64,000 nt of DNA from Granulicella mallensis MP5ACTX8 (GTDB taxonomy: Bacteria; Acidobacteriota; Terriglobia; Terriglobales; Acidobacteriaceae). Shown here piece by piece: positions 19,498 to 21,727 of the stretch. Under the pieces are notes generated by a model. The model saw only the letters and a program-made list of their open reading frames with translations, made no database searches and was not told where the DNA came from. The position numbers and the translations under genes are program-made. The stretch lies in contig NC_016631.1 of NCBI RefSeq assembly GCF_000178955.2, positions 6,138,001-6,202,000 on the forward strand. The letters are read 5' to 3'. Numbering within the stretch: the first letter of the stretch is position 1; the number at the start of each line of letters is the position of its first letter.

Positions 19498-19524
19498 CCG
19501 TCAACGCTTCGAGCAGGTCAGCGG

Positions 19525-19564
19525 CAATGAGAAAGGCCACCCCTGCGGGTGGCCTTTCTCATTG
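19525..19564. terminator. Hairpin terminator after the radical SAM gene
   Basis: An 18-bp perfect stem (CAATGAGAAAGGCCACCC, 19525-19542) with a CTGC loop and right arm 19547-19564. It lies between the stop of the radical SAM gene and the start of the DUF4239 gene, both on the minus strand. Confidence 0.85.
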
Positions 19565-19591
19565 CTTGTTGCGCGAAGCGCATCCAGCGAA

Positions 19592-21727
19592 CTAGTCGCC
19601 GGCTACGGTCTCTTCGATGTTGTTGACGACCTCAGCCTTGCTGGTGACGGGAGCCGCGGGCTTGATGCCGCCCAAGCCGCCGATCTCGCCGATCGCTACA
19701 AAGCCTGCGGGAGCTTCCGCCTCCTGGAGGATCTCCTTGCGATACAGCTTGGCCATGCGAGCGTTCTCGGCATCCTGCTTCAGCTTCGCGTCGCGTGCGC
19801 GGATCTTTTCTTCGCGCGCGTTCTTGGCGATACCACTCTTGTCGAAGGTATCGTTCGCAGCCGAATCAACATGCTCCTGGTTGAGGACGAGGTCATACTT
19901 CGATTCCTTCTCGAGGCCAACCTTCTTGCCGCCCGCGAAGATCTCGTGACGACCGTGCTCCTCATACCACTTGGTGAGCGACGAGGTCATGTGCATCTTC
20001 TCGATGATGTTGCGCCAGCCCACACCCGTGTTGTACGCGCAGAAGCTGATCTCGCCTTCCTGCGTCGCGTACGGGATGATGCACTGCTCGGTGCGGCGGA
20101 AGTCGTAGTTGAAGAGGTCCTGGAACCACATGCCGGCGATGAAGAGGAAGTTCCAGCGATCGGCGCGGCGCTTCTCGATGTCCGCCTGGGTGCGGTCGGC
20201 GGTGACCTTGCCGTAGTTGCGGCCGGTCGCGCCAAAGCACTTATCGAACTTGGTCAGCAGCGAGAAGATGCTGAAATGGGTGGGAGCGTTCTTCGGCTCG
20301 TAGTTACGGATGAGCGCGAGGGCAGCGCCAACCATGGTCAGGTACTTGCCGCGAGCCGCGTCGTTGACGCGCGCGATGTCCTTGGCCAGACGGTCGGCGT
20401 TCAGGAAGGCCGTGACGGGCACAGCTTCCTTGGTTTCCTTATCGATCATCAGCGCCATGCCGATACCGCAGTTCGGGTGGCAGCCACAGGAGAGCTGGCC
20501 CCAGTCGTGGTTCGGTCCGTGCACCAGATCGGCCCAATCGCTGAAGGTCGACATGAAGCTGATGGGGAACCAGTCGCGAACAGGCTCGCCGAGACCGGTC
20601 TGGTTCTTGACGTCGTGTGCGAGATGGCTGAGCGTGTAACGCTGCGCCATACGGCGCTCGTCCGAAACCTCTTCATCGCGGCCCGTGAACGAGACCGGCT
20701 GGAAGCTGAGGAAGTTGATCTTCTTGGGGTTGTCGAGAGCGAACTCGATGATGCGGCCAACCTGCTCGTTGTTGATGCCGTTGATGATGCAGGTGACGGG
20801 GACGATATCCACACCGGCCTCGTGCAGGTTGTGGATCGCCTGGAGCTTCACGTCGAACGAGTTGCCGACCTTGCGGTGCGAGTTCGCCGCATTGCCGATA
20901 CCGTCGAACTGCAGGTACGCATAGCGAAGACCTGCTTCAGCGGCAGCCTTTGAGAACTCCTTGGACTTCGCGAACTCGATGCCGTTGGTCGCAGCCTGCA
21001 CCGAGGTGTAGCCGACCTTGCGGGCATAAGCGACCGCGTCGAGGAAGTAGGGGCTCAGTGTGGGCTCGCCGCCCGAGAACTGAACCGACATCTGGCGCTT
21101 GGGCTTGATCGTGACCGCGTTGTCCAGCATGGTCTTGATCTCGTCCCATGTGAGCTCGTGGACGAAGCCGACCTGGTTGGCGTCCATGAAGCAGGGATCG
21201 CACATCATGTTGCAGCGGTTGGTGAGATCGATGGTGAGAACCGAACCGCGGCCATGGGTGACGGTCGAGGTGCCGTGGTTGTGCAGCTTCTCATCGTTGT
21301 GGGCGCGGATGTCGCGGCCCGGGAAGACCTCTTCGAGGTGCTTGAAGAAGGCCGTGTCGATCGACATGACGTCTTCAAAGTGGCCGTGGATCGGGCAATC
21401 CTTGACCATCAGGATCTTGCCGTCGCGCTCGATGATCTGCGCCTTGATCTCGCCGACCTTCTCGTTGAGCAGGATCTCGTGGGGCAGCTTGCCGTCCACG
21501 ATCTGCTGGCGAATCTCGGGAACGCACTTGGGGCAGAGGGAATCAGTGGTACGGGGCCAGCCGAGGGGCGGCTTTTCCTTCTGGTAGGACTTCAGCAGGG
21601 GCTTATCGCTCCACTTGGGAGTAAAGCTCTTGTTGGGGCTGATCGAATTCAGCTTGTTGAACACGCTCCAGCCAGCCTTAGCGGTGAGCACCACGCCTTT
21701 TTCAAAGAGCTTCGTTGCCTTTGCCAT
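19592..21727 (-). CDS. Radical SAM protein of the tetraether/membrane-spanning lipid synthase type
   Basis: Large radical SAM protein of 711 aa from ATG 21727, which has an AGGAG site upstream. The N-terminal part has a rubredoxin-like set, C65/C68 (SLCPKC) with C111 and H114 (DCPIHG). The radical SAM core has C172, C176, C179 (RCNMMCDPC) and GGEPT at 219-223. Auxiliary-cluster cysteines follow at 414, 416, 420 (SCGCHPNC), 497, 549 and 563. This layout matches the COG1964 group, which includes the archaeal tetraether synthase and bacterial relatives proposed to couple fatty tails into membrane-spanning lipids. A charged helical extension of about 110 residues at the C-terminus is extra. Confidence 0.8.
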   Translation of the reverse strand: MAKATKLFEKGVVLTAKAGWSVFNKLNSISPNKSFTPKWSDKPLLKSYQKEKPPLGWPRTTDSLCPKCVPEIRQQIVDGKLPHEILLNEKVGEIKAQIIERDGKILMVKDCPIHGHFEDVMSIDTAFFKHLEEVFPGRDIRAHNDEKLHNHGTSTVTHGRGSVLTIDLTNRCNMMCDPCFMDANQVGFVHELTWDEIKTMLDNAVTIKPKRQMSVQFSGGEPTLSPYFLDAVAYARKVGYTSVQAATNGIEFAKSKEFSKAAAEAGLRYAYLQFDGIGNAANSHRKVGNSFDVKLQAIHNLHEAGVDIVPVTCIINGINNEQVGRIIEFALDNPKKINFLSFQPVSFTGRDEEVSDERRMAQRYTLSHLAHDVKNQTGLGEPVRDWFPISFMSTFSDWADLVHGPNHDWGQLSCGCHPNCGIGMALMIDKETKEAVPVTAFLNADRLAKDIARVNDAARGKYLTMVGAALALIRNYEPKNAPTHFSIFSLLTKFDKCFGATGRNYGKVTADRTQADIEKRRADRWNFLFIAGMWFQDLFNYDFRRTEQCIIPYATQEGEISFCAYNTGVGWRNIIEKMHMTSSLTKWYEEHGRHEIFAGGKKVGLEKESKYDLVLNQEHVDSAANDTFDKSGIAKNAREEKIRARDAKLKQDAENARMAKLYRKEILQEAEAPAGFVAIGEIGGLGGIKPAAPVTSKAEVVNNIEETVAGD

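What the first reader, a model, noticed from the sequence alone, without database searches (positions are those of the whole stretch)
19592..21727. Candidate membrane-spanning (tetraether-type) lipid synthase in an acidobacterium
The sequence shows an N-terminal CxxC plus CPxHG metal site, a CxxxCxxC radical SAM core, and further cysteines at 414, 416, 420, 497, 549 and 563. That layout is the one known for the COG1964/Tes group, which couples lipid tails using several iron-sulfur clusters and a rubredoxin-like iron. Acidobacteria are known to make iso-diabolic acid, a membrane-spanning lipid. The protein is longer than archaeal Tes, with a charged C-terminal extension of about 110 residues of unknown role, and it stands alone with its own terminator. 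If correct, it is the enzyme for bacterial membrane-spanning lipids in this organism.
Basis: partly seen in the sequence, partly recalled or inferred. Interest (0 to 1): 0.78.

Follow-up and report, generated by a model that had tools for sequence, protein, structure and literature searches.

The report
Acidobacterial membrane-spanning lipid synthase candidate
A soil bacterium carries a cousin of the archaeal enzyme that welds lipid tails together across the membrane; almost all genomes checked in its class have it, which makes it a strong, still untested candidate for making a membrane-spanning lipid of these bacteria.

The parts
19592..21727 (-). CDS of the Tes-related radical SAM protein (P0001, 711 aa plus stop)
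21644..21721 (-). N-terminal helix (residues 3-28) of the ~60-residue N-terminal extension; predicted with high confidence
   Evidence: model pLDDT 88-96 in that stretch; residues before C65: median 64 and 67.5 in the two clade sets, 43 in bacterial Tes, 8 in M. jannaschii Tes; membrane contact is inference and not supported by the helical moment
21386..21535 (-). rubredoxin-type iron site C65, C68, C111, H114
   Evidence: aligns with C9/C12/C33/H36 of MJ0619; Pfam Zn_ribbon_HMPTM 5.7e-13
21257..21289 (-). place of the lost N-terminal auxiliary [4Fe-4S] cluster (K147, H151, S154, T157 in place of C73, C77, C80, H83)
   Evidence: 0 of 115 clade members keep C73/C77/C80/H83; 31 of 31 bacterial Tes do
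21191..21214 (-). radical SAM CX3CX2C (C172, C176, C179)
20678..20701 (-). loop Q343-P-V-S346-F-T-G-R350, equivalent of the SAM-closing loop Q268/S271/R275 of Tes
   Evidence: 115 of 115 identical at the three positions (in bacterial Tes S271 is A in 21 of 31); role from PMC9433317 passages
20468..20488 (-). C414-G-C416-H-P-N-C420: C420 is the first ligand of the C-terminal [4Fe-4S] cluster; C414 is invariant in the clade and not seen in the Tes sequences aligned
20129..20131 (-). M533, equivalent of the labile Met439 ligand
   Evidence: 115 of 115
20081..20083 (-). C549, C-terminal cluster ligand (C455 of MJ0619)
   Evidence: 115 of 115
20039..20041 (-). C563, C-terminal cluster ligand (C470 of MJ0619)
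   Evidence: 115 of 115
19595..20038 (-). C-terminal extension (148 residues after C563), with a long charged helix at residues 633-665
   Evidence: residues after C563: median 140 in 81 SD1/SD3-type members, 109 in 34 divergent members, 34 in 31 bacterial Tes; helix in the model
19524..19565 (-). perfect 19-bp hairpin downstream of the stop, possible transcript end
   Evidence: z -9.1; not a hit of the terminator scan

Best explanation
[quoted passage not shown] Proposed mechanism, by analogy with Tes: the 5'-deoxyadenosyl radical made at C172/C176/C179 takes a hydrogen from one tail end, the carbon radical is parked on a sulfide of the C-terminal [4Fe-4S] cluster (C420/M533/C549/C563), and a second hydrogen abstraction on the other tail completes the C-C bond. 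The N-terminal auxiliary cluster of Tes, whose role is unknown, has been lost. Shown here: homology, fold, ligand conservation, distribution. Inferred: substrate, product, mechanism.
Against: No activity data. Score below the Tes equivalog cut-off. All four ligands of one Tes cluster are lost. Solibacter usitatus has Tes homologues but no detectable iso-diabolic acid, while it makes brGDGTs; whether one of its homologues belongs to this clade was not tested. A review gives a lower count for the 2011 survey, substantial iso-diabolic acid in 3 of 17 strains (PMC11767167), in conflict with PMC13274423; the original paper is not held. Mss, another enzyme with the same proposed reaction, could not be searched for lack of a reference sequence. 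One other unassigned radical SAM protein (R2) is as universal (57 of 61); nine further unassigned ones were not profiled and eight of the 28 others were not scanned. 6 of 200 class genomes lack the gene. No iso-diabolic acid measurement for G. mallensis was found in the search made. The model is poor around the active site (pLDDT below 50 at 139-162, 170-189, 347-353 and 536-593), so cluster geometry is not tested.
Confidence: 0.6

Rival explanations
1. The coupling of iso-C15 tails in these bacteria is done by another radical SAM enzyme (Mss, or the universal partner R2), and the protein here acts on the same lipids in another step, for example coupling only after ether formation, or modifying the spanning chain.
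For: R2 is found in 57 of 61 class genomes and is linked to the clade gene in some lineages. Mss is the proposed coupler in Bacillota and Mss hits are reported in 11 of 97 Black Sea acidobacterial MAGs. S. usitatus makes ethers and tetraethers without detectable iso-diabolic acid.
Against: R2's Pfam hits are Radical_SAM and Fer4_12 only, so nothing shows a Tes-type C-terminal cluster domain. The C-cluster with Met, tied to C-S bond formation in Tes, is invariant in the clade.
Confidence: 0.22
2. The protein works on a non-lipid substrate: an unexplored COG1964 function that kept the Tes fold.
For: Below the Tes cut-off, one cluster lost, an invariant Cys (C414) not seen in Tes, long N- and C-terminal extensions.
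Against: Retention of the labile Met and all C-cluster ligands; the clade nests among Tes sequences in a quick tree; its distribution follows a class with much iso-diabolic acid.
Confidence: 0.1
3. It is a canonical tetraether synthase that makes brGDGT from diethers.
For: Proposed for acidobacterial Tes homologues in PMC8941075 and PMC10087280.
Against: The SD1 strains in the passages read hold much iso-diabolic acid and little or no brGDGT or glycerol ether. True Tes (over the cut-off) is found in only 33 of 395 acidobacterial genomes and, among the 50 of the window's own family in that sample, in three that also have the clade gene, so the two are different proteins.
Confidence: 0.08

Closest known systems
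Tetraether synthase Tes / GDGT-MAS (MJ0619, PDB 7TOL/7TOM; NF045702)
   Same: Fold, rubredoxin-type site, radical SAM core, SAM loop, C-terminal [4Fe-4S] ligands with labile Met; 142 of 469 aligned residues identical
   Different: No N-terminal [4Fe-4S] ligands; extra invariant C414; longer N- and C-terminal ends; 319.6 bits against a cut-off of 450; organism with bacterial fatty-acid lipids
Bacterial Tes homologues of Acidobacteriota (33 of 395 genomes over the cut-off)
   Same: Nearest sequences in the tree; gene adjacent or near in three genomes of one family, possibly one event
   Different: Keep the ligands of all four metal sites (31 of 31, one truncated row with gaps at the first site); rare, while the present clade is near-universal in its class
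TrsS-like radical SAM protein (paralogue at G000 C1 ~1.249 Mb, L002)
   Same: N-terminal metal site and radical SAM core
   Different: Keeps the N cluster ligands, loses the C cluster ligands (SVTD); scores higher with TrsS than Tes
Mss, membrane-spanning lipid synthase of Bacillota and Thermotogota
   Same: Same proposed reaction; said to share catalytic architecture with Tes (PMC13274423, passages)
   Different: Thermotoga maritima has no hit to the Tes profile at 1e-30 (control); no Mss sequence was available for comparison

Membership tests
Tetraether synthase Tes (NF045702, GDGT-MAS) | profile score at or above the curated cut-off (450 bits) | tested here: not met
   319.6 bits
Tetraether synthase Tes (NF045702, GDGT-MAS) | rubredoxin-type iron site CX2C...CX2H | tested here: met
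   C65/C68/C111/H114; 113-115 of 115 in the clade
Tetraether synthase Tes (NF045702, GDGT-MAS) | N-terminal [4Fe-4S] cluster: C73, C77, C80 and His | tested here: not met
   0 of 115 clade members, 31 of 31 bacterial Tes
Tetraether synthase Tes (NF045702, GDGT-MAS) | radical SAM CX3CX2C cluster | tested here: met
   115 of 115
Tetraether synthase Tes (NF045702, GDGT-MAS) | C-terminal [4Fe-4S] cluster ligands C338, C455, C470 and labile Met439 | tested here: met
   115 of 115 by alignment; geometry not tested, since the model is weak there
Tetraether synthase Tes (NF045702, GDGT-MAS) | overall fold | tested here: met
Tetraether synthase Tes (NF045702, GDGT-MAS) | coupling of two sp3 lipid tail ends | not testable with these tools
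   needs enzyme assay or gene deletion
TrsS radical SAM (seleno)protein (NF045646) | profile score at or above 490 bits | tested here: not met
   202.3 bits
Mss membrane-spanning lipid synthase | sequence similarity to Mss of Bacillota/Thermotogota | not tested
   the 2022 Mss paper is not held; no Mss sequence was at hand

The most novel reading that the evidence does not exclude
Many Acidobacteriota use a conserved pair of radical SAM enzymes for their membrane-spanning lipids: a Tes-derived coupler that works with two [4Fe-4S] clusters instead of three, and an unnamed radical SAM partner (R2) that acts on the same lipid. Coupling ester lipids directly would make iso-diabolic acid first and brGDGTs later, in strains that add ether bonds or acquire a true Tes.
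Probability: 0.3. Interest if true: 0.78.

Novelty: new variant of a known kind. Interest (0 to 1): 0.6.

Why it matters
iso-Diabolic acid is a major lipid of many cultured Acidobacteria and the presumed building block of the brGDGTs used to reconstruct past temperature and pH; its coupling enzyme was called 'still unknown' in 2022 (PMC10087280, passages). A defined, near-universal and usually single-copy candidate makes the question testable by one deletion or one in vitro assay. If a Tes-type enzyme works without the N-terminal auxiliary cluster, it would also show that this cluster is not needed for sp3-sp3 coupling.

Tried and rejected
Canonical Tes: rejected by the cut-off and the lost N cluster. 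Operon with lipid genes: not found. In 101 clade loci the commonest neighbours were a ~317-aa protein without Pfam hit upstream on the same strand (18 loci, all from the search for related loci set) and a lytic-transglycosylase/SPOR protein on the opposite strand (16 loci, L119 and L120 among them) (Pfam); another recurrent 'family' (16 loci) is antisense frames of the gene itself. Independent linkage of the clade gene and true Tes: seen in L119, L120 and L121, but in the tree the three genomes group together for both genes, so it may be a single event and is weak support. A second structure prediction of the core alone gave lower confidence (pLDDT 66) and was not used. A membrane-binding N-terminal helix was considered: helical moment not outstanding (first 14 windows rank 38-211 of 694). 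A plasmid search gave 18 records, at most 28.9% identity. PADLOC and PHROGs were not searched.

Full report
Observation. The ORF is as described: 711 aa, minus strand, 19592-21727. The genome is one contig of 6,237,577 bases, the size in Table 3 of PMC3910553 for Granulicella mallensis MP5ACTX8T (passages; the running text of that paper gives 6,211,694). The listed cysteines are all there. 78 of the 80 bear acidobacterial titles; two are titled Rhodanobacteraceae, probably mis-binned contigs (inference).

Metal sites. PMC9433317 (passages) describes Tes with a rubredoxin-type iron (C9, C12, C33, H36), an N-terminal [4Fe-4S] (C73, C77, C80 and a conserved His; H83 is my reading of the alignment), the radical SAM cluster and a C-terminal [4Fe-4S] with labile Met439; [quoted passage not shown] It also says the roles of the remaining metallocofactors are not clear. 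C338, C455 and C470 as the C-cluster cysteines are my reading of the alignment, not a passage I saw. I aligned MJ0619, 31 bacterial Tes sequences (all from places over the cut-off) and 115 sequences of the window's clade, its own copy included. Clade: first two rubredoxin Cys 113 of 115 (two gaps), the other two ligands 115 of 115; radical SAM 115 of 115; C338/M439/C455/C470 115 of 115; N-terminal cluster ligands 0 of 115, against 31 of 31 in Tes. C414 is invariant in the clade and not seen in the Tes rows; C416 is in 115 of 115 and in 26 of 31 Tes; C497 in 36 of 115. A repeat with more distant relatives shows the TrsS-like paralogue of this genome with the N cluster but no C-cluster ligands, a haloarchaeal and a mycobacterial protein with the C-cluster cysteines but no Met, and a second paralogue in Acidicapsa dinghuensis (L167) with neither set complete. 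So the clade keeps what Tes chemistry is known to use and drops one cluster of unknown role.

Phylogeny. In a quick tree of 80 rows (43 clade, 33 Tes, 4 others) the clade is one group (support 100; L167 falls inside it) and sits, with the Tes of families f51 and f6, inside the Tes part (support 99). The program flags long branches that meet, so the nesting is provisional.

Distribution. The Tes profile at 1e-30 hits 210 of 395 acidobacterial genomes, 33 of them over the Tes cut-off. With a profile of the clade itself, 194 of 200 genomes of the window's class have it at 1e-120; the six without are outside the window's family. Of nine genomes searched through named loci, seven have one Tes-like match at 1e-30, among them Granulicella rosea, Edaphobacter lichenicola and Acidipila rosea; Acidicapsa dinghuensis has the paralogue as well and one Bryobacteraceae MAG a true Tes as well. 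iso-Diabolic acid is reported at 20-40% of fatty acids in 17 SD1/SD3 cultures and in SDs 1, 3, 4 and 6 of a survey of 46 strains from 7 SDs (PMC13274423, passages), 11.8-30.4% in six Edaphobacter strains (PMC11354219, passages), about 30% in two strains (PMC6252331, passages), 26.8-49.2% in five strains of the Occallatibacter group (PMC12935467, passages) and among the main fatty acids of Chloracidobacterium (PMC12816986, passages). Against this, a review says 3 of 17 strains for the 2011 survey (PMC11767167, passages), and S. usitatus makes brGDGTs but no detectable iso-diabolic acid (PMC10087280, passages). I found no measurement for G. mallensis itself; its iso-C15:0 is 45.3%.

Other candidates in the genome. 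Pfam Radical_SAM gives 29 hits. Of the 28 others I scanned 20 against NCBIfam; six are over a cut-off (HpnJ, HpnH, PqqE, YhhB, MoaA, HemW); eight were not scanned. Five unassigned ones were profiled in 61 class genomes at 1e-60: 7, 26, 25, 12 and 57. Nine were not profiled: the TrsS-like protein, the four of the cluster near 1.07 Mb, L181, L183, L186 and L191.

Partner R2. The fifth, R2 (G000 C1 409592-410665), is a 358-aa radical SAM protein without a named family; its cysteine-rich end looks SPASM-like by eye. Its relative lies next to the clade gene in 6 of 115 clade loci (5 of the 101 longer than 7 kb, plus L151): upstream on the same strand in L083, L139, L141, L143 and L151, downstream in L074. 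Coordinates show the same pair in G286, G304 and G363. Across the phylum R2 is in 130 of 395 genomes; by eye, 125 of these have a Tes-like hit, and outside the class 71 of 76 against 34.8 expected. The p-value there ignores relatedness, and the Tes-like hits counted include true Tes and TrsS-like ones. Five genomes have R2 without a Tes-like hit (G059, G116, G205, G300, G345), and many genomes have the clade or Tes without R2. Of the 61 class genomes R2 is missing in four and the clade gene in three, two of them shared. In Granulicella the two genes are unlinked.

Context. In the window the neighbours are a bestrophin-like protein, a beta-barrel protein, a VWA protein and MutS2, with no lipid gene. 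In three genomes of the same family a true Tes gene lies near the clade gene: about 3.4 and 5.7 kb away in L120 and L119, about 250 bp in L121, possibly one inherited event. A 19-bp perfect hairpin follows the stop codon.

What is known. PMC8941075 (passages) already names a Tes homologue in Edaphobacter aggregans (32% identity) and better ones in Koribacter and Solibacter as possible brGDGT synthases. PMC10087280 (passages) proposes the S. usitatus homologues and calls the iso-diabolic acid coupler still unknown. PMC11868695 (passages) says bacterial Tes activity is unconfirmed. PMC13274423 (passages) treats Mss as the coupler of Bacillota. The Mss paper of 2022 is not held. In the listings and the passages I read I saw no test of an acidobacterial coupler and no account of the lost N cluster; only searched for auxiliary clusters, supplements were not readable, and the library holds open-licence papers only.

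Verdict. Homologue of Tes: shown. Canonical Tes: no. Membrane-spanning lipid synthase of these bacteria: likely, untested.

Noticed in passing
G000 C1 409592-410665 (L162:6590-7666:-): R2, an unassigned radical SAM protein, near-universal in the class (57 of 61) and next to the Tes-related gene in several other lineages: candidate partner enzyme.
   Followed up: partly
L167 (Acidicapsa dinghuensis, G398 C9 126500-131000): A paralogue that has lost the ligands of the N-terminal cluster and the cysteines of the C-terminal one: possible new function or a degenerate copy.
   Followed up: partly
L002 / G000 C1 ~1249390-1250862: TrsS-like radical SAM protein shortly after an Lgt-like (prolipoprotein diacylglyceryl transferase-like) gene; it lost the Tes C-cluster ligands.
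   Followed up: partly
L163 (G000 C1 1067000-1081000): Cluster of four radical SAM genes (478-515 aa, two of them weakly BchE-like) with a methyltransferase-domain gene among them; no NCBIfam family over a cut-off.
   Followed up: no
L020:4735-5688 and relatives in 18 of 101 clade loci: A ~317-aa protein without Pfam hit recurs upstream of the gene on the same strand; not seen upstream of the gene in the window.
   Followed up: no
window 19524-19565: Perfect 19-bp hairpin (z -9.1) between the gene and its downstream neighbour, without a T-run.
   Followed up: partly
L018 and L023: Contigs titled Rhodanobacteraceae that carry genes 88-90% identical to the window's: probably mis-binned acidobacterial contigs.
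   Followed up: no
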